The notes beneath the pieces are model-generated. The model did no database searches. It was not told where the DNA came from and saw only the letters and a list, made by a program, of their open reading frames with translations. DNA of 44,983 nucleotides from a virus: positions 1 through 44,983 of the IMG/VR virus record IMGVR_UViG_3300040793_000026. One strand, given 5' to 3'. Below are positions 1-44,983 of the stretch, one piece after another (positions within the stretch are counted from its first letter, which is position 1; each line of letters opens with the position of its first letter). Both the position numbers and the translations under genes were made by a program.

Positions 1-56
1 AGCAACCCGGGGTCAAGCTAATCCGCGATGCTAGGCTATCGTCGGTTCTTTACGCC

Positions 57-818
57 GTGAGATCAATGCCAGGGTTGGCAAAAGACGACAAGGGCGTCAA
101 GGCGGCGTTTGCTCGCCGTAGACGGATGCGTGAACAGGCGAAATGGCTTGCTGAAAAGCTATTGAATAAAGAGCCTGATATTCACACTGTGAAGCTGACA
201 GGGCAAAACCACAATTTCGCCGACATCACTTGCTACGGCAGCGGGGGACGCGAAGTACCGTGCTCGGTCAAGCACAACAGCCGCGAAGTGGCGGGGCACC
301 GAATACGTCAAGAGAACATTGATTATCTCCCGTTCCCTGGCGAGTTGGAAACCAGCCCCCAATATCGAAACGACATACAGTCGATTCTCTGGTTCTTGGA
401 AGACCAAAAGGGGCGCTACTCCAAAAACGTCCCGCCCCAACGCACGATAGCGGAGATCGTAGCGGTCACTATCATAGAGAAAGAACTGAGGAGGCGCCAA
501 GACCTCATTCAGATATTCCGTGCCGCGTTAGGGCATACCGACCACTACCTACTCATAGGGGGAAGCGACGGCGCTATGATAGACGGGTACAACTTTCACG
601 GCTCCCTCAACTGCCGCAAAATCCCCCTGCCGCAACAGGACGTAGTTATAGAGACGCGCGGCAGCGTTCAGAAGCCGTTGCACATTATCTCTTTGACCTC
701 CTCTGGGTTTACGTTGCAGTGGCGTAGCCACATGAAAAGCAATATAAAACCCGGCGCGTTTGGTGGGTCGCTGACAGTTAGGAGCGTACCGACAGGGTTC
801 TATCGAGAGCAACAATGA
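57..818 (+). CDS. HaeIII-family restriction endonuclease-like protein
   Basis: Predicted DNA endonuclease of the PD-(D/E)xK fold. D56 followed by the strand S70-V71-K72-H73-N74 matches the 'D...SIKHN' catalytic signature I know from HaeIII-type enzymes, and family-like blocks follow in the expected order: a helical middle part, the 'GYNFHGSLN' segment near residue 178, and a C-terminal block (residues about 215-250) resembling the family's 'FRIHNA...' end. The GTG at 57 is listed; ATG at 66 is an alternative. The frame stays open to the left edge of the window with no clear Shine-Dalgarno site, so the N-terminus may lie further upstream. At 253 aa it is somewhat short for the family. Its stop overlaps the ATG of the Mom-like gene by 4 nt (ATGA), so the two are probably translationally coupled. 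No methyltransferase gene is seen nearby. The family call is from motif memory; the recognition site is unknown. Confidence 0.68.
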   Translation: MRSMPGLAKDDKGVKAAFARRRRMREQAKWLAEKLLNKEPDIHTVKLTGQNHNFADITCYGSGGREVPCSVKHNSREVAGHRIRQENIDYLPFPGELETSPQYRNDIQSILWFLEDQKGRYSKNVPPQRTIAEIVAVTIIEKELRRRQDLIQIFRAALGHTDHYLLIGGSDGAMIDGYNFHGSLNCRKIPLPQQDVVIETRGSVQKPLHIISLTSSGFTLQWRSHMKSNIKPGAFGGSLTVRSVPTGFYREQQ

Positions 819-1516
819 TTGAACTTGAATGTGTTAAGCGCACCGACCCGCGCTATAAGTCGATCCGAGACCGACACTACATCCCTAACAGCGGATGCCA
901 CGGTCAGCAACTGCATTACCTGGCGTTTGACAGCGGCGAGCTGGTCGGCATCATCAGCGGCGCCAGCGCAACGTACGACGTCGGTCCGCGCGATCGTTTT
1001 TTCGGTCTCAGCAAAAGCAAAGCGGTCAAGCAAGTGCAGCTGAACGGGATCATCAGTAACAACGTTTTCAGGCTCGAGGTGCCCGCGCCAAACAGAGCCA
1101 CGCGCATCTTGTCCGCTTGGCGCAAGCGGATCGCGTGGGACTGGGAGTACCTTTACGGCGTGAAGGTCGCCGGGTTCGAGACCTTCATTATTGAGGAACG
1201 CCGCGACGGGCAATCCGATCGACTAGGTACGCTCTACCTCGCGGACAACTGGACCTTTCTCGGGGTCACCAAGGGGAACACGAAACAACACGCCCAGGAG
1301 AAAGGGAGCGGCGGGCTAAAAGCTAAGCACACGCGCAAGACAGTGGTTCCGAAGCTGATTTACGCCATAAAGGTCAAAAAAGCCCGTTTGCCGGAGAGCT
1401 ACGAATCCTCCTGGAAAGGCAACCCTGGCTTAGCGCGCGAGCGTTCAAACAAACGTAAGTCCATGATTGGGCAGCGCAGGTCAACGCCAGCGGCCTCTCC
1501 GATTAGCCGCCGCTGA
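815..1516 (+). CDS. mom: Mom-family DNA adenine modification protein
   Basis: Looks like the phage Mu Mom family, GNAT-fold enzymes that convert adenine in DNA to N6-carbamoylmethyl-adenine and so block restriction. Conserved-looking blocks run in order: 'RHYIP...GQQLHYL' (residues 20-35), 'GIISGASATYDVGPRD' (45-60), 'NGIISNNVFRLE' (77-88), a Trp-rich 'LSAWRKRIAWDWEYLYG' (99-115) and 'FETFI' (121-125), then 'LADNWTFLGVTKGNTKQH'. Length (233 aa) fits the family. The ATG overlaps the endonuclease stop, forming a two-gene unit. In Mu, Mom protects phage DNA from host restriction; here the partner upstream is itself a predicted endonuclease, which suggests self-protection (inference). The C-terminal tail after about residue 195 is basic and poorly conserved-looking. 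Confidence 0.8.
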   Translation: MIELECVKRTDPRYKSIRDRHYIPNSGCHGQQLHYLAFDSGELVGIISGASATYDVGPRDRFFGLSKSKAVKQVQLNGIISNNVFRLEVPAPNRATRILSAWRKRIAWDWEYLYGVKVAGFETFIIEERRDGQSDRLGTLYLADNWTFLGVTKGNTKQHAQEKGSGGLKAKHTRKTVVPKLIYAIKVKKARLPESYESSWKGNPGLARERSNKRKSMIGQRRSTPAASPISRR

Positions 1517-1624: not shown

Positions 1625-1652
1625 TTGACTGACACGTTAGCTACTGTATAAT
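1625..1652 (+). promoter_or_regulatory. sigma70-type promoter with shared TAGCTA block
   Basis: -35 TTGACT (1625-1630), 16-bp spacer, -10 TATAAT (1647-1652). The spacer contains TGACAC-GT-TAGCTA (1630-1643), a block that recurs at 11908 and 20601. Transcription would start near 1659 and run into the gene at 1716. Confidence 0.8.
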
Positions 1653-5658: not shown

Positions 5659-5982
5659 ATGCTTGATACACCGTTCACCCTGGCTGGCGTTCACCTATAC
5701 GTCAGCGTCATGATCACAGTAATAGCTATCGCATTACTGTATCTTTCCATCAACCATAAGAGGTATGACCTTTCACTACTCATAATCGTGTTGTATGTTC
5801 TGCAACTAATATTCACACCGTTACGGTACGCCGAAATTAGGCCAGACCCGGCAGCATCGTGGCGGCAGCCTCTCACAGAAGAACCCCCCGTAGAACGCGT
5901 CCATGTGCCCGCCGGTAAAGACCGGATGAAGGCGCTGGAAGCCAAAACTGAAGAAAACTGGAGAATCATCAATGAGAATTAA
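5659..5982 (+). CDS. Small membrane protein with two transmembrane segments
   Basis: 107 aa. Two hydrophobic segments are visible, residues about 9-30 (ending 'IAIALLYLSI') and 38-55 ('LSLLIIVLYVLQLIFTPL'), then a charged C-terminal tail ending in 'KALEAKTEENWRIINEN', probably helical and cytoplasmic. No family is recognised. Its end overlaps the start of the SPFH lipoprotein gene by 11 nt, so the two are probably coupled and may work together at the inner membrane. A holin role is unlikely given the early location, though not excluded. Confidence 0.7.
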   Translation: MLDTPFTLAGVHLYVSVMITVIAIALLYLSINHKRYDLSLLIIVLYVLQLIFTPLRYAEIRPDPAASWRQPLTEEPPVERVHVPAGKDRMKALEAKTEENWRIINEN

Positions 5983-6838
5983 AGCGGTCCTGTTGTGCTG
6001 CGCGGCAGCATTTACCTTGCAAGGGTGCGGCGAAGTCGTTCAGCCTGGATTCCAGGCGAAAGTCCTGACGCCTGGTGGGTACACCGAGGAGATCCTCGGG
6101 GTCGGGCGGCATTGGCCTGGATGGCGCGGCAAGCTGGTCTTCCTGGAGACCAGTACGAACACCGTGACGGAAGACATCCCGGCAAAGCTCAGCGACGGTC
6201 AAGACCTCACCGTGGACGTCCGCACCCGTGGGCGAATCGAAGGCAGTGAGGACGTGCTCAATGCCATGTTCAATACGATCAGCTTGCCCGACAACGACGT
6301 GCTGAGTTACGACCAAATCTACAGCATTTACATGCTGCCGGAGATACGCGAAGGCACGCGCGCCGCCGTCTCGAAGTTCAACGCGATGGAGGTGCCGGCG
6401 AATTACCAAGCCCTCGCCGCGTCTGTGACCGAAGAGATCAAGGCTCGCACCGAAAACTTGCCGATCGTTCTGGAATCGGTCTCTGTCGGAAAAATGGACT
6501 ACCCCCAGGTGGTGAAGGACGCCATCGACAAGGCGTCCGCGCGGCAGATGCAGGTAGCGGAGGCATTGGCGCAAGCTGAGATTGACGTGACCAAAGCAGA
6601 AGCACGGGAAAAAGTCGCGGCGGCTGAATATAAAGCCAAGATCGCCGAGGCTAACGCCATTGCCGACGGCAACAAGATCATCGCAGAATCGCTGACACCA
6701 TTGCTGCTGGAACATCGGCGATTGCAGGTAGCCGAAAGCACGATGAACAACATCAGACCGGACGAGACCGACGTGGTCTACATGCCGTTTCAGACCCTGT
6801 CTACGCCCATGAATATGGGCCACATCACCAACCCGTAG
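5972..6838 (+). CDS. SPFH/band-7 (prohibitin-like) lipoprotein
   Basis: 288 aa. The N-terminus is a lipoprotein signal: a hydrophobic stretch then L-Q-G-C with the lipidated Cys at residue 19. The mature part fits the SPFH/band-7 fold: beta strands from about residue 25 ('KVLTPGGYTEEILGVGRHW'), 'DGQDLTVDVRTRGRI', then the long alanine/glutamate-rich helix (residues about 185-235, 'AEALAQAEIDVTKAEAREK') typical of stomatin/prohibitin oligomers. Such proteins form membrane-associated rings; host HflK/HflC of this family control FtsH. A phage copy could alter membrane organisation or protease control (inference). It overlaps the membrane protein gene at 5659. A hairpin follows its stop codon. 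Confidence 0.82.
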   Translation: MRIKAVLLCCAAAFTLQGCGEVVQPGFQAKVLTPGGYTEEILGVGRHWPGWRGKLVFLETSTNTVTEDIPAKLSDGQDLTVDVRTRGRIEGSEDVLNAMFNTISLPDNDVLSYDQIYSIYMLPEIREGTRAAVSKFNAMEVPANYQALAASVTEEIKARTENLPIVLESVSVGKMDYPQVVKDAIDKASARQMQVAEALAQAEIDVTKAEAREKVAAAEYKAKIAEANAIADGNKIIAESLTPLLLEHRRLQVAESTMNNIRPDETDVVYMPFQTLSTPMNMGHITNP

Positions 6839-15371: not shown

Positions 15372-15559
15372 AAAAGTCCGACCGACTCACAGAACGCGAG
15401 ATCGAACTGCTGGAAGGGATGATCTCCGTGCAGGAGCGCCACGCTGAGCGTTGCGACCGCATCGGAAACCGCCGCATGGCGGAGAAGCAACGGGGCTGGA
15501 ACATGGAGCGGATCGCCCTTCTAAACCGAATTCTGAAAGTGATGGGACCAGAAAAATGA
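15368..15559 (+). CDS. Small charged helical protein
   Basis: 63 aa, GTG start overlapping the previous stop (GTGA). The protein is almost entirely charged and helical ('LTEREIELLEGMISVQERHA'), with no recognised family. Its stop overlaps the thymidylate synthase ATG by 4 nt. Probably a small regulatory or accessory protein; no function can be given. Confidence 0.65.
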   Translation: MKKSDRLTEREIELLEGMISVQERHAERCDRIGNRRMAEKQRGWNMERIALLNRILKVMGPEK

Positions 15560-16428
15560 TCCACGTTCCCGTAGAACATCAATACCTGCATCTCGTTAAC
15601 CGAGTGCTCACCGAAGGGGTATGCACGACCAACCGCACCGGCGTCGACGCGCTAGAGGTTCATGGCGCCTACCTGACCGCCGACCTCGCCGCAGGCGCCC
15701 CGGTGCTGACTACCAAGCGGGTCGCGTGGATGTCCGCCTACGCCGAGATGATCGGCTTCATGCAGGGTCTCGACAACGCTGCCGACTTCCGCAAGCTGGG
15801 CTGCCAAGTCTGGAACGCCAACGCCAATGACAACCGAGAGTGGCTTTCCAATGAGCACCGGAAAGGACCGGACGATCTCGGACGCGTGTACGGAGTTCAG
15901 TGGCGCAATTGGCGGACTCAGTACGGCACGGCGATCGATCAACTACGCAGAGTCGTTGACAGCCTCTCCGCCGGCACCGGCTCCCGCCGCGAGATCGTCA
16001 CGGCATGGAACCCAGCGGAGCTTCACCTGATGTCGCTCCCGCCGTGCCACATGATGATGCAGTTCGGGGCGATTGGCGACATGCTGGATATGAGCGTCTA
16101 CATCCGTTCCAACGACCTGGGACTTGGCGCCCCGTTCAACCTGGCGCAGTACGGCATGCTGCTGCAGTTGATGGCGCAGATTACCGGGCACGTCCCCGGC
16201 ACGCTCCACTACTTCGCCTTCGACGCGCACGTCTACGAGAACCACATCGAAGCCCTTGAGGAACAGCTTAATCGGCTTCCGCTGTTGCCTCCGCAACTGA
16301 TCATCGATGACCGGATCAAGACCCTGGACGACATCGGGGATCTGCGGACCGCCGAAGACATCGCTCAGGCGTTCTCGCTTCAAGGGTACTCCCCGCACCC
16401 AGCAATCAAGATGGAGATGGCGGTATGA
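15556..16428 (+). CDS. thyA: Thymidylate synthase (ThyA family)
   Basis: 290 aa from ATG 15556 (ATGA overlap). Makes dTMP from dUMP with methylene-tetrahydrofolate. The catalytic Cys is C164 in 'LPPCHMM'; 'LGRVYGVQWRNW' is the folate/phosphate region; 'RSNDLGLGAPFNLAQY' holds N195, the Asn that selects dUMP over dCMP; and 'YFAFDAHVYENH' is the C-terminal substrate region. It belongs with the divergent phage ThyA type having 'VWNANAN'. A related phage enzyme class, dUMP hydroxymethylase, shares this fold, so hydroxymethyl-dUMP synthesis cannot be ruled out by eye. It works with the dNMP kinase and MazG-like proteins encoded downstream. Confidence 0.88.
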   Translation: MIHVPVEHQYLHLVNRVLTEGVCTTNRTGVDALEVHGAYLTADLAAGAPVLTTKRVAWMSAYAEMIGFMQGLDNAADFRKLGCQVWNANANDNREWLSNEHRKGPDDLGRVYGVQWRNWRTQYGTAIDQLRRVVDSLSAGTGSRREIVTAWNPAELHLMSLPPCHMMMQFGAIGDMLDMSVYIRSNDLGLGAPFNLAQYGMLLQLMAQITGHVPGTLHYFAFDAHVYENHIEALEEQLNRLPLLPPQLIIDDRIKTLDDIGDLRTAEDIAQAFSLQGYSPHPAIKMEMAV

Positions 16429-16619
16429 ACTACTGCGCCAAGCGTAACCGCCGTTGGGTCTGCACTGCCAACAGCGTCAAGAAGCAACGGGATTGCGACC
16501 ACTTCACCGAAGCCCCGAACCAGCTGTGGTGCGCCTGCACTGACGCAGTAGCCCGATGCAACAACCTAATCGCCCGCGCCAACTCGCGGGATAACCCCGA
16601 ACCGCTGGACGACGACTGA
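16425..16619 (+). CDS. Small Cys-rich hypothetical protein
   Basis: 64 aa with six cysteines (C4, C13, C24, C36, C38, C45) and several basic residues, possibly a zinc-binding or nucleic-acid-binding miniprotein. ATGA overlap with the thymidylate synthase stop; its own stop overlaps the next ATG. No family is recognised. Confidence 0.65.
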   Translation: MNYCAKRNRRWVCTANSVKKQRDCDHFTEAPNQLWCACTDAVARCNNLIARANSRDNPEPLDDD

Positions 16620-16828
16620 TGATTGTACATTTCGATAGTGACATCTACGCCGATCAACTGCGCGCCGCGCTGGCGGCGTCTGAGATCGATCTGGTGCCCA
16701 TCAAGAAGGGCGAGTATCGGGCCAAGCGGCGCGACCGATCCTGTGCCCACTGCGACATGCCGGCGGCGCTGCTGGTCGGCAACGAACCGGTCTGCGTGCG
16801 CCATTGGCGGGAGTTGGACAAGCAGTGA
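16619..16828 (+). CDS. Small zinc-finger-like protein
   Basis: 69 aa. Residues C42-x2-C45, C59 and H62 form a CxxC...CxxH pattern, a likely zinc site. The N-terminal 40 residues ('DIYADQLRAALAASEIDLV') are helical and acidic. TGATG and GTGA junctions tie it to both neighbours in one operon. Function unknown. Confidence 0.65.
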   Translation: MIVHFDSDIYADQLRAALAASEIDLVPIKKGEYRAKRRDRSCAHCDMPAALLVGNEPVCVRHWRELDKQ

Positions 16829-17028
16829 AACGCGGAACATATATTGGCTCAGATGAAGTCCTGAAAGGGGAAACGGCGCTGGTACGCTTCACGCCTACCC
16901 AGGGGGTAGTGCTGGCCCAATTCGATAATCTCGACCTTGATGGACCCAGGGGATGGTTATCGCACGACTGGACTGAATTCTTAGTCGAGTCTTTCTATTT
17001 CGAGGAGGACGACGATGCCTCCGCATAA
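16825..17028 (+). CDS. Small hypothetical beta-rich protein
   Basis: 67 aa from GTG 16825, chosen over the earlier in-frame ATG 16804 because of the 4-nt GTGA overlap typical of this operon. The middle strands 'TALVRFTPTQGVVLAQFD' and a conserved-looking 'GWLSHDWTEF' suggest a small beta-barrel (SH3-like), as in several phage proteins whose sequences contain a 'W..F...DF' end. The C-terminus is acidic. The 3' end overlaps the kinase gene by 14 nt. Confidence 0.6.
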   Translation: MKRGTYIGSDEVLKGETALVRFTPTQGVVLAQFDNLDLDGPRGWLSHDWTEFLVESFYFEEDDDASA

Positions 17029-17584
17029 AATCGTTTTCCTGAACGGTCCGCCGGGATGTGGCAAAGACACCGTCGGCAGGATGCTCGCCGAGCGGTACGG
17101 CGCGCAACTGTTTAAGGCAGCGACGCCGTTGCGTCAGGCGATGAGCGCCCTGATCGGCTGCGAGGACAGCGAGATCGAGCAGTTGAAGTCCACGCCCATT
17201 CGGCTGTGGGCATGGCGCTCCGCCCCCACCGGCACCACCGGGCGCGACCTGTTGATCGCCCTATCAGAAGACCTGATAAAGCCCCGCCTGGGCATGGACT
17301 GGTTTGGTCACATGCTGGGGCAATCGATCGCCACGGCGGCGCCCCGGCTCGCGGTCGTGACTGACGCCGGGTTCGTTTCTGAAGTCGAAGCGTGCTGTAA
17401 AAATCTGCCAGGCTGGGAGATCAATTTGTGGCACGTCACGCGTCCTGGATGCGACTTTTCGGGTGACTCGCGTTCTTGGATATCGCTGCGAGGCGTCCGC
17501 ACCCGCGTGGTCCTGAACGACGGTTCCCTGGACCAGCTCCAGCAGCGCGTGGTCTGCGCCTTCGACCGAGGGTACGTTCCCTAA
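17015..17584 (+). CDS. Deoxynucleoside monophosphate kinase-like P-loop protein
   Basis: 189 aa. Walker A 'GPPGCGKDT' (residues 11-19), a substrate region 'FKAATPLRQAMSAL' and 'AVVTDAGF' (Walker B-like, as in phage dNMP kinases 'iisD.Rf'). It should phosphorylate dNMPs to dNDPs for phage DNA synthesis. It lies two small genes after thymidylate synthase, which fits a dTMP-to-dTTP path. It overlaps the previous gene by 14 nt; a structured 93-nt gap follows. Confidence 0.75.
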   Translation: MPPHKIVFLNGPPGCGKDTVGRMLAERYGAQLFKAATPLRQAMSALIGCEDSEIEQLKSTPIRLWAWRSAPTGTTGRDLLIALSEDLIKPRLGMDWFGHMLGQSIATAAPRLAVVTDAGFVSEVEACCKNLPGWEINLWHVTRPGCDFSGDSRSWISLRGVRTRVVLNDGSLDQLQQRVVCAFDRGYVP

Positions 17585-17597
17585 CTACCTTTCCCAC

Positions 17598-17654
17598 GGC
17601 GCTCTAGGGGTTTGCACGATTAACAATCTGCGTACCGGAAGCACCTAGAGCGCC
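17598..17654 (+). terminator. 11-bp long-loop hairpin between operons
   Basis: GGCGCTCTAGG (17598-17608) pairs perfectly with CCTAGAGCGCC (17644-17654). The 35-nt loop has a smaller GATT/AATC stem (17618-17621 with 17625-17628). It fills the gap between the kinase and the gene at 17678; 'TATTTTG' follows. It could be a terminator, an RNA-processing site or a 5' regulatory structure; position alone does not decide. Confidence 0.5.
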
Positions 17655-17677
17655 ACCTATTTTGACCGGAGATCCCG

Positions 17678-17890
17678 ATGCCTGTAGCCCTGAGCGAGCC
17701 GTACCGCACCTTATTGGTCGGCGATTCAGAAGACGAGCTAGTCGAGGAAATGCTGCCTTTTGTCCGTGAAGACTTAAATCGCGCATTTGCCGCCGGTATC
17801 CGCCTTACGGGTAGAATCCAAGTCGGGCGGATTCTGTACAGAGCGACACTCGGCGCCGTTTTCAGACCAACAGCGGAGATGGACGCATGA
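17678..17890 (+). CDS. Small hypothetical protein
   Basis: 70 aa, unrecognised. An acidic helical middle ('DSEDELVEEMLPFVRED') is followed by a basic strand region ('RIQVGRILYRATL'). ATG 23 nt after the hairpin at 17598-17654; ATGA overlap with the next gene. No function can be given. Confidence 0.6.
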   Translation: MPVALSEPYRTLLVGDSEDELVEEMLPFVREDLNRAFAAGIRLTGRIQVGRILYRATLGAVFRPTAEMDA

Positions 17891-18264
17891 CACCCGAAAG
17901 AGAACAAGACTTGCTCAGTCAAATAGGCGGGCTAACCGACGAAAACTACCGCCTACGCCATGAGCTGCGGAAGATCGCGAGTGAAAACTACAGCCTACGC
18001 CAGGATCTGCGGAAGATCGCGATTGAACGCGCGCAACAAATCGCGTCCTTATGGGATCCGCCTGAGATAAGAGTATCGGCGCACCCCACTAGACCCTCGT
18101 CTATCGAAGTTCGGCTATCGCCGGTATATTCGAGGTTAGAGATACTCAACGATCTGTACTTCGAGTCTACAGAGGTGGCTAATCGCATGATCGCTGAAGA
18201 TATCGCCAAAAAGCTCGTACAAGAGATCGAAAAACAACTGAAAGTAAACGGAGACCCTGTATGA
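17887..18264 (+). CDS. Coiled-coil protein with 14-residue tandem repeat
   Basis: 125 aa. Residues about 19-46 hold two copies of a 14-residue unit (E-N-Y-x-L-R-x-x-L-R-K-I-A-x) encoded by a 42-nt tandem duplication. The unit is amphipathic and likely a coiled coil. The C-terminal half is mixed ('SSIEVRLSPVYSRLEI', then a helix to the end). No family is recognised; ATGA overlaps on both sides place it in the same operon as the MazG-like gene. Confidence 0.65.
   Translation: MTPEREQDLLSQIGGLTDENYRLRHELRKIASENYSLRQDLRKIAIERAQQIASLWDPPEIRVSAHPTRPSSIEVRLSPVYSRLEILNDLYFESTEVANRMIAEDIAKKLVQEIEKQLKVNGDPV
17941..18024 (+). repeat. 42-bp tandem duplication in the coiled-coil gene
   Basis: The segments 17941-17982 and 17983-18024 differ at only a few positions and encode ENYRLRHELRKIAS and ENYSLRQDLRKIAI. 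The duplication keeps the frame and the coiled-coil register. Confidence 0.9.
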
Positions 18265-18818
18265 ACTTCAACGACGAAACCAAGTCCACCGTCGACCAGC
18301 TCGCGGCGAACATCTACCGGATGAGCCAGGCGATGCTCGCCCGCGATGATAAGTCCTTCGAAGACGCCTTGCTGGATGTCGGACTGCTGGTCGGTCACCT
18401 GCGCGTGATGACCGGCGATAAAGAGGAGGAGTTCCTGCCCGCTTCTACGCTCACGGATAACCCTCCCGTGCAGCTGAGCGTCGCCAGGCAGTTTGTGAAC
18501 GCGTGGAACGATCTGTCGACCGTGATTTACGGCGGCAACATTGAGAAGGGGTTCTGGGGCGAAGGCGACGAGCGAAACAAAGGAGAGATGATCGCGCTGA
18601 TCCACTCTGAGCTGTCCGAGGCGCTGGAGTCGATGCGTCACGGCAATCCGCCGAGCGAGCATATCCCGGACTTCAGCGGCGTCGAGGAGGAGTTGGCGGA
18701 CGCAGTCATCCGCATCATGGACATGTCCGCTGGGTTCGTCTACGAGGTCGGCGAGGCGATCGAAGCCAAGCTCGCCTACAACGCCGAGCGCCCGCACAAG
18801 CACGGCAAGCGGTTCTGA
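18261..18818 (+). CDS. MazG-like nucleotide pyrophosphohydrolase
   Basis: 185 aa. The C-terminal half has the all-alpha NTP pyrophosphatase signature: E117-L-S-E120 and E144-L-A-D147 (ExxE...ExxD, magnesium ligands), with 'KGEMIALIHSELSEALE' and 'ADAVIRIMDM' around them. MazG-type enzymes hydrolyse (d)NTPs or ppGpp; phage copies are thought to clean nucleotide pools or alter the host stringent response. The N-terminal 90 residues are a helical extension that I do not recognise. ATGA overlap with the coiled-coil gene. Confidence 0.8.
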   Translation: MNFNDETKSTVDQLAANIYRMSQAMLARDDKSFEDALLDVGLLVGHLRVMTGDKEEEFLPASTLTDNPPVQLSVARQFVNAWNDLSTVIYGGNIEKGFWGEGDERNKGEMIALIHSELSEALESMRHGNPPSEHIPDFSGVEEELADAVIRIMDMSAGFVYEVGEAIEAKLAYNAERPHKHGKRF

Positions 18819-36809: not shown

Positions 36810-37658
36810 TTACGGGCAAGTTCCCCAGACGGGGAAGTTCTGCGCCTGCAGGGCGGACCCGGTGGCGAAATCAGTCGGCTCTACAGCGATGTTCGACACA
36901 CACCAGCCGGACAGATCTTGGTTAAATGCCGTAGCGTTCATGAACGCATAGTCCATATCCAAGACGGTGCTCGTGTCCCAGTTGCCTGCTTGCGGATTTG
37001 CCAACGAGCAGTCTTGGAACATCGAAGAGATGTCCGTTGCATGAGCCAGCGGATCGGTGGCACTGACGATTAAGTTGGAGCAGCCTCTCAACCCATTGCT
37101 CCACGAGTCCCGAATGCACTCGCCCCATTGGTGGATCTCAACGACCTTCAGGCGGTCTCCGCCCCCATCGAAGTTCGGTCCGGGGAGATTGCCGGTAATG
37201 CTGACCTGGTACGTTCCGGGGGCTGGGAACGTGTGGGCTGGAATCGCTTCCTTATGGAACTCAGAATCGCTGCCGTCGCCCCAGGTGATGAGGGCGTAGA
37301 ACCACCCTTGACGATTCGGCCACTGGAAACTCAAGTCGCCACCTGTCACCGTAACGGACATGATGAACGGGCGACGGCTGAAGATATCCGGTCCTCGCAG
37401 CGGTCCGTTATCGGACCAGATACCCTCGTTCTGCATCTCCCAGAGAGGGTAGTTAACCATGTCGTCCATCTCGCCCTGCTGGACAGCGTAGCCCTCGAGG
37501 AGCATCGCGTCTTGAAGACTCGGAAGCGTCACCACCTGTCGGGTCAGTCGGTTGACGACAACGTCGTCCATCTCCGGTGGCGTGCGAACGATCAGATACA
37601 GCGGAATTCTGGAAAGGTCCGCGCGTTGACCACGAAAACAGATTGAAATTGGCATCAC
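36810..37658 (-). CDS. BspA-like (DUF285) repeat protein with Ig/PKD-like part
   Basis: 282 aa from GTG 37658 (ATG at 37655 next in frame). Residues about 110-170 look like a PKD/Ig fold ('FYALITWGDGSDSEFHKEAI', 'FPAPGTYQVSI'). The C-terminal third has the DUF285/BspA leucine-rich-like units: 'DISSMFQDCSLANPQAGNWD', 'VLDMDYAFMNATAFNQDLSG', 'DFATGSAL', ending 'PVWGTCP'. Such repeats are usual in bacterial surface proteins and adhesins. In the virion operon it may be a head or neck decoration that binds cell surfaces or polysaccharides (inference). No signal peptide is seen, as expected for a virion protein. Confidence 0.78.
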   Translation of the reverse strand: MMPISICFRGQRADLSRIPLYLIVRTPPEMDDVVVNRLTRQVVTLPSLQDAMLLEGYAVQQGEMDDMVNYPLWEMQNEGIWSDNGPLRGPDIFSRRPFIMSVTVTGGDLSFQWPNRQGWFYALITWGDGSDSEFHKEAIPAHTFPAPGTYQVSITGNLPGPNFDGGGDRLKVVEIHQWGECIRDSWSNGLRGCSNLIVSATDPLAHATDISSMFQDCSLANPQAGNWDTSTVLDMDYAFMNATAFNQDLSGWCVSNIAVEPTDFATGSALQAQNFPVWGTCP

Positions 37659-44388: not shown

Positions 44389-44983
44389 TTAGTAGATGTC
44401 TAGGATTTCGGTTTCGTTCAAGATCGGCGTAACTGAGTAATCGCCCGTTGCGATGTCGACTTCAGCAATCCCACAGACCGGTTCCGGCACCCATCCGCGT
44501 AGCGGAAGATTGCGTGTGAAGTCATCGTCGTATCGCATCGCGGATAACCCCACAAAAGCAGTGTCGCCGGCTATCAGCAGCCCGCGCGTAAAGCCTGGCA
44601 ACTCTGCGATAAACCCATGCTCCAATGACCGCAAAGCACCGTAGCCCGATTCGCAGAACAACAGGTCATCGCCATAGATGCGCGGTGAGTGTGGCATCGA
44701 TAGACCGCCGAGGATCACCTTTCCCTCCACATCAAATACGACACCACCGTTTTCGGTCTTCTGGCGCCACTCATGCGCTAGACGGCTGTTGGAGACCGCT
44801 GTTACGTAAACCAGCCGGTCGTCTTGAATGGCGGCGCCATTGACGTGCGAGCAGTCCGCATCGAGCTTCGCGTTCTTCCACACTACCATGCCATCATAAA
44901 CGACAGCGTCGCGCGTCGGGTCCGCCCACCACTTGCCTTGGATGTCCCGGCGCGAGTCGTTATCGAAAAAGCGAATATTGACG
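44389..44983 (-). CDS. TIGR03032/DUF4915-like protein, 5' end outside the window
   Basis: Partial: the frame is open to the right edge, and residues before the ATG at 44889 ('RRDIQGKWWADPTRDAVVYD') look coding. 'VILGGLSMPHSPRIYGDDLL', 'AELPGFTRGLL', 'AFVGLSAMRYDDDF' and 'CGIAEVDIATGDYSV' match the C-terminal beta-propeller-like pattern of the TIGR03032 family, found in bacteria near glycan and surface-polysaccharide genes; function is not established. As the first gene seen of the late operon, just before the fibre gene, it may be a virion protein handling surface glycans (inference). Confidence 0.7.
   Translation of the reverse strand, partial: VNIRFFDNDSRRDIQGKWWADPTRDAVVYDGMVVWKNAKLDADCSHVNGAAIQDDRLVYVTAVSNSRLAHEWRQKTENGGVVFDVEGKVILGGLSMPHSPRIYGDDLLFCESGYGALRSLEHGFIAELPGFTRGLLIAGDTAFVGLSAMRYDDDFTRNLPLRGWVPEPVCGIAEVDIATGDYSVTPILNETEILDIY

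What the first reader, a model, noticed from the sequence alone, without database searches (positions are those of the whole stretch)
57..1516. Phage-encoded restriction endonuclease coupled to a Mom-type DNA modifier, with no methyltransferase
Seen: a HaeIII-like PD-(D/E)xK signature (D56, SVKHN at 70-74) overlapping a Mom-like gene by 4 nt. Known: Mom makes N6-carbamoylmethyl-adenine and protects Mu DNA from host restriction; restriction enzymes normally pair with methyltransferases. Inference: this phage may use Mom marks to spare its own genome while its enzyme cuts host or competitor DNA, giving a restriction-modification system based on acetamido-type adenine instead of methylation. I know of no described example.
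Basis: partly seen in the sequence, partly recalled or inferred. Interest (0 to 1): 0.88.

Follow-up and report, generated by a model that had tools for sequence, protein, structure and literature searches.

The report
Phage HaeIII-like nuclease beside DruA/Mom acyltransferase
A fragment of a phage genome carries a distant cousin of the DNA-cutting enzyme HaeIII directly in front of a DNA-modifying enzyme of the DruA/Mom kind; both genes look real, but the piece of genome where the cutter's usual methylase partner would sit is missing, so there is no evidence yet that the two form a new methylation-free restriction system.

Summary
Both genes are real and the family guesses were good. ORF1 (open from base 3 to 818) is a full-length collinear relative of HaeIII-family endonucleases: profile score 55 against at most 28 for 1,019 controls, with catalytic D56, S70, K72 and N74 kept. 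ORF2 (815-1516) is a GNAT. Its sequence family is DruA (PF14236); its nearest solved structure is phage Mu Mom (Z 14.6), and Mom's Ser124 position is Thr96.

The proposed system is not shown. The record is a linear fragment whose left end cuts ORF1 itself. HaeIII-family genes had a C5-methyltransferase next door in 16 of 18 loci, in 13 on the upstream side, which is off this contig. So 'no methyltransferase' holds only for the 45 kb held. The closest relatives of ORF2 (seven viral contigs, 45-53% identity) have no HaeIII gene, and other phage DruA genes sit beside true mom genes, so ORF2 looks like a stand-alone DNA modifier. GGCC, HaeIII's site, holds no adenine. It is the most avoided tetramer here (73 seen, 268 expected), but some phages with ORF2-like genes and no HaeIII gene avoid it too. 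REase-plus-Mom systems were already predicted in jumbo phages (PMC7824862). Verdict: a new combination of known parts; function open.

The parts
3..818 (+). ORF1, 5'-truncated gene (runs off the left contig end) for a divergent HaeIII-family PD-(D/E)xK-type endonuclease; first in-frame GTG at 57
   Evidence: open frame; hhalign to HaeIII family score 55.4 vs at most 28 in controls; invariant D56, S70, K72, N74, R82, S100, G159, R223, H225 (GTG57 numbering)
815..1516 (+). ORF2, 233-aa DruA/Mom-superfamily GNAT acyltransferase (short phage type without the N-terminal domain of bacterial DruA)
   Evidence: PF14236 E 2.7e-14; AlphaFold model pLDDT 69.8 with GNAT topology; best PDB match phage Mu Mom 8bv8; phylogeny and motifs
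815..818 (+). ATGA overlap of ORF1 stop and ORF2 start
   Evidence: sequence
1625..1652 (+). sigma-70-like promoter (TTGACT-16-TATAAT, 11 of 12) after ORF2, opening the next transcription unit; ORF1-ORF2 are thus probably the 3' end of an operon that starts off the contig
   Evidence: consensus match only

Best explanation
ORF1 and ORF2 are the last two genes of an early operon of a tailed phage, cut at its 5' side by the contig end. ORF1 is a Type II endonuclease of the HaeIII superfamily (homology shown; activity and GGCC specificity inferred). Most likely it belongs to a phage-borne restriction unit whose cognate methylase lies just upstream, off the contig, and serves to exclude other DNA or to attack host DNA (inferred). 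ORF2 is a GNAT of the DruA/Mom superfamily (shown by profile and predicted fold) that attaches an acyl-derived group to bases of phage DNA and so shields it from host restriction, as Mom does (inferred from fold, conserved active-site positions and its co-occurrence with mom genes in other phages). The two are co-transcribed conflict genes, not necessarily two halves of one restriction-modification pair.
For: ORF1: hhalign E 1.9e-7 over 225 columns, far above all 1,019 controls, with catalytic positions kept. C5-methylase next to the HaeIII gene in 16 of 18 loci; in 12 it is directly upstream on the same strand and in one divergent upstream. Fragment: IMG/VR 'linear', no terminal repeat, no terminase/portal/capsid found. 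ORF2: PF14236, Mom is the best structural match, H21/Y22/Y141 are shared with all Mom and DruA proteins aligned, and T96 lines up with Mom S124. Close ORF2 relatives L159-L165 have no HaeIII gene; phage DruA genes next to mom in L118, L120 and L122, confirmed by Pfam in L118. GGCC is the rarest tetramer relative to expectation.
Against: The upstream methylase is not seen; its presence is inferred from relatives. ORF1 is only about 20% identical to HaeIII-family members, so it may have another specificity or role. The GGCC deficit may come from host restriction: L160, L162 and L163 lack a HaeIII gene in the sequence held yet are depleted too. DNA as ORF2's substrate is not tested.
Confidence: 0.5

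Rival explanations
1. One reading: ORF2 is the protective partner of ORF1, an acyl-type base mark (on adenine or another base with an exocyclic amine) replacing methylation in a two-gene phage restriction-modification system.
For: Adjacent, overlapping genes; no methylase in the 45 kb held; REase-Mom fusions with this predicted role exist in jumbo phages (PMC7824862).
Against: No HaeIII-like gene at any viral or bacterial DruA locus examined and no DruA at any of 18 HaeIII loci. Known HaeIII-family site GGCC has no adenine. The contig stops where the methylase is usually found. Full protection of GGCC would leave little reason for the genome to lose GGCC.
Confidence: 0.17
2. ORF1 is an orphan nuclease with no cognate modification in the phage; the phage tolerates it because GGCC is depleted from its genome or because the host's own GGCC methylase protects it, and uses it to degrade host or rival DNA.
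For: GGCC O/E 0.27 over the whole record, even in all five 9-kb parts; 60 sites against 273 in codon shuffles.
Against: 73 GGCC sites remain, enough to destroy the genome if unprotected. Depletion also occurs in phages without a HaeIII gene in the sequence held. Absence of a methylase is not established.
Confidence: 0.18
3. Chance neighbours: two independently acquired accessory genes in a variable early region, with ORF1 possibly a decaying remnant of an acquired restriction system.
For: The pair was found nowhere else. Short overlaps are common in this genome. ORF1 is very divergent.
Against: ORF1 is open for 271 codons and keeps its catalytic residues, which argues against simple decay.
Confidence: 0.15

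Closest known systems
HaeIII-family Type II endonucleases (Pfam PF09556, e.g. HaeIII, NgoPII)
   Same: Full-length collinear profile match; D...SxKxN core; FNxxGSLN-like and RxH motifs
   Different: About 20% identity, below Pfam's cut-off; cognate C5-methylase not seen because the contig ends; followed by a GNAT gene
DruA / DUF4338 (Pfam PF14236; one protein of the Druantia type I defence system, also found near transposases)
   Same: Significant Pfam match; HY, GxxL, RDRF.G, ETF, GTxYxAxNW motifs
   Different: Phage-borne, lacks the N-terminal domain of bacterial DruA, no other Druantia gene seen; sits in a separate phage clade with support 0.96
Phage Mu Mom (PF25680; solved structure 8bv8)
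   Same: Nearest solved structure; GNAT fold; H, Y, S/T and Y active-site positions conserved; similar small size
   Different: Below the Mom Pfam cut-off and outside the Mom clade (support 1.0); product and target base unknown
Predicted Mom-REase conflict modules of jumbo phages (Iyer et al. 2021, PMC7824862)
   Same: Same logic: a Mom-superfamily GNAT coupled to a restriction-type nuclease in a phage
   Different: There fused domains in jumbo phages with true Mom; here two separate genes, HaeIII-type nuclease and DruA-type GNAT, in a smaller phage fragment

Membership tests
HaeIII-family endonuclease | Full-length homology to the family | tested here: met
   hhalign prob 93.7, E 1.9e-7, 225 columns; best of 1,019 controls scored 28 vs 55
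HaeIII-family endonuclease | Catalytic core residues (D and SxKxN) | tested here: met
   D56, S70, K72, N74 invariant in A3
Pfam PF09556 as such | Score above the curated cut-off (25 bits) | tested here: not met
   no match at E up to 10; therefore filed as a divergent relative, not as a PF09556 member
HaeIII-type R-M system | Adjacent cognate methylase | tested here: inconclusive
   none in the window, but the contig ends inside ORF1, on the side where 13 of 18 relatives carry it
HaeIII-family endonuclease | Cleavage at GGCC | not testable with these tools
   indirect only: GGCC O/E 0.27, confounded
DruA (PF14236) domain | Score above the curated cut-off | tested here: met
   53.4 bits vs 27
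Druantia defence system | Further Druantia genes beside druA | tested here: not met
   ORF1 and ORF2 have no PADLOC match; neighbouring genes match phage replication and other phage families
GNAT superfamily | GNAT fold | tested here: met
   model topology; Z 12-15 to many GNATs
Mom family (PF25680) | Score above the curated cut-off and position inside the Mom clade | tested here: not met
   14.4 vs 27.1 bits; outside the Mom clade, support 1.0
Mom family | N6-carbamoylmethyl-adenine product | not testable with these tools
   needs LC-MS
Recurrent REase-GNAT restriction unit | The pair conserved in other genomes | tested here: not met
   no HaeIII-like gene at viral or bacterial DruA loci and no DruA at HaeIII loci; the searches cover close relatives only

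The most novel reading that the evidence does not exclude
A two-gene phage restriction-modification system in which a HaeIII-type nuclease is kept off self DNA by a DruA-type GNAT that acyl-modifies a base in or near the site (for example the cytosine or guanine amino group in GGCC), with no methyltransferase at all.
Probability: 0.12. Interest if true: 0.85.

Novelty: new variant of a known kind. Interest (0 to 1): 0.5.

Why it matters
If ORF2 proves to mark DNA, it would give a concrete chemistry to the DruA family, whose role in Druantia defence I do not know to be settled, by tying it to Mom through fold and active-site positions. If it also protects against ORF1, it would be a restriction-modification pair without methylation. 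Even in the ordinary reading it adds a HaeIII-type nuclease to the phage arsenal and a phage-specific DruA clade that often co-occurs with mom.

Tried and rejected
Single-sequence searches of ORF1 (Pfam, PHROGs, NCBIfam, PADLOC, PDB, phages, plasmids, viral and genome contigs) gave nothing. The weak plasmid hit of ORF1 is antisense to a transporter gene and was rejected. A degenerate DNA pattern for the SVKHN core found one chance contig. AlphaFold of ORF1 alone is poor (pLDDT 44.5), so it was not used in a fold search; its first 90 residues do form a helix followed by strands that carry D56 and SVK. GGCC depletion at first looked like independent proof of ORF1's specificity; controls showed depletion in ORF2-like phages with no HaeIII gene in the sequence held, so it is kept as suggestive only. 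Flank contexts of GGCC are all depleted (0.03-0.72), with no single longer site.

Full report
WHAT IS THERE. The window is a whole IMG/VR record of 44,983 bases, classed linear, without terminal repeat, 59% G+C. The frame of ORF1 is open from base 3 to 818 and ORF2 runs from 815 to 1516, overlapping by ATGA. A sigma-70-like promoter follows at 1625-1652, so the two genes probably close an operon that begins to the left of the contig (inference). 4-nt overlaps are common in this genome.

ORF1. Single-sequence searches were empty. I obtained HaeIII-family proteins through PF09556 from bacterial genomes and compared the profile of seven of them with ORF1: probability 93.7, E 1.9e-7, 225 aligned columns running through D56, SVKHN, the FNxxGSLN-like stretch and RxH. 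The same profile against 1,019 controls (70 other window frames, 200 shuffles and one reversal of ORF1, 748 unrelated frames) gave at most 28 bits, against 55 for ORF1. Invariant across ORF1 and the family are D56, S70, K72, N74, R82, S100, G159, I167, R223 and H225. PF09556 itself does not report ORF1, so it is a divergent relative. The family has about 50 residues before the region that ORF1 aligns to; the frame runs off the contig, so the gene is truncated and the GTG at 57 is not a convincing start.

THE MISSING METHYLASE. No methylase family match or motif set was found in the proteins searched from the record. Neither did I find terminase, portal or major capsid genes, so the record is incomplete. 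In 18 HaeIII-family loci (7 from genomes, 11 viral) a C5-methylase motif gene is adjacent in 16: directly upstream on the same strand in 12, divergent upstream in one, downstream in three. One of the other two, L097, has a downstream gene that by eye resembles a D12-type adenine methylase. In the window the downstream place is taken by ORF2 and the upstream place is off the contig. The claim 'no methyltransferase' therefore cannot be made.

ORF2. Pfam calls it DruA (53.4 bits, cut-off 27) and only weakly Mom (14.4, cut-off 27.1). An AlphaFold model with 19 DruA relatives (pLDDT 69.8) has GNAT topology; its best solved match is the Mom inactive mutant S124A (8bv8: Foldseek E 2.9e-6; Z 14.6, rmsd 3.4 over 161 residues), with general GNATs just below (Z 12-14). 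Profile comparison of DruA with Mom gives probability 92, E 6.9e-7. Mom S124 lines up with T96 of ORF2 and S or T in all relatives; H21, Y22 and Y141 are shared by all proteins aligned. An earlier comparative-genomics study had already called DUF4338 a GNAT (PMC10853773). ORF2 and seven viral relatives form one clade (support 0.999) inside a phage clade (0.96), apart from Mom (1.0).

CONTEXT IN OTHER GENOMES. The 80 bacterial DruA loci and the viral DruA loci (18, and about 75 more, some on the same contigs) contain no HaeIII-like gene; nor do 11 whole records around the closest relatives (where no positive control was included). The HaeIII loci contain no DruA. In L118 and L122 a short DruA gene is followed by one or two mom genes and a second DruA-like gene, and 11 of the newer viral loci also hold a mom gene. 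This points to ORF2-like proteins as DNA modifiers that work without ORF1.

GGCC. HaeIII-family enzymes are known to cut GGCC (established knowledge; ORF1 untested). GGCC is the most under-represented of all 256 tetramers in the window: 73 seen, 268 expected, z -11.9. In codon shuffles of 41 genes it is 60 against 273 (z -18), and it is even across the record (0.24-0.32). Phages of similar G+C give 0.88-1.10. However, 4 of 7 contigs of the ORF2 clade, without a HaeIII gene in the sequence held, are at or below 0.35, against 4 of 39 other viral loci. Site avoidance by phages is common (PMC6286503). The deficit is compatible with a GGCC nuclease in the phage but does not prove it, and GGCC lacks adenine, which does not fit the adenine-mark model.

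CONCLUSION. Shown: the homologies, the overlap, the truncation, the GGCC deficit and the absence of the pair elsewhere in what was searched. Inferred: ORF1 is a GGCC-type nuclease with an off-contig methylase; ORF2 modifies phage DNA. Not supported: a self-contained acetamido-adenine restriction system. The general idea was published for jumbo phages (PMC7824862). The particular pairing of a HaeIII-type nuclease with a DruA-type GNAT I did not find elsewhere, so I file it as a new variant of a known kind.

Noticed in passing
L118 5935-10132; L122 5863-9415: A 238-kb viral contig carries DruA-type GNAT, Mom, a 463-aa gene and a second DruA-like gene in a row; another contig has DruA, two Mom-like genes and a DruA-like gene. 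DruA and Mom travel together in large phages.
   Followed up: partly
window 1-44983: GGCC is depleted to 27% of expectation over the whole record; several ORF2-clade contigs without a HaeIII gene (L160, L162, L163) share the deficit.
   Followed up: partly
window 15451-18818: Thymidylate synthase (PF00303), dNMP kinase-like and pyrophosphatase-like genes in a row; such sets occur in phages with modified pyrimidines, not examined here.
   Followed up: no
L097 582-1430: A HaeIII-family gene without an adjacent C5-methylase; the downstream gene resembles a D12-type DNA adenine methylase by eye (YPGGKSKALKYILPNLP), not searched.
   Followed up: no
window 36810-37658: Protein with a DUF285 (Mycoplasma-type) repeat and a PKD-like domain among tail genes.
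   Followed up: no
window 5972-6838: SPFH/Band 7 protein encoded in a phage early region.
   Followed up: no
window 44389-44982: Second truncated gene at the right contig end, matching DUF4915 (E 2.8e-39).
   Followed up: no
L105 1510-2115: In Salmonella phage VSiA a mom gene sits between DUF2815 and DNA polymerase; the window has the same DUF2800, ssDNA-binding, DNA polymerase order with small unrelated ORFs in that place.
   Followed up: no
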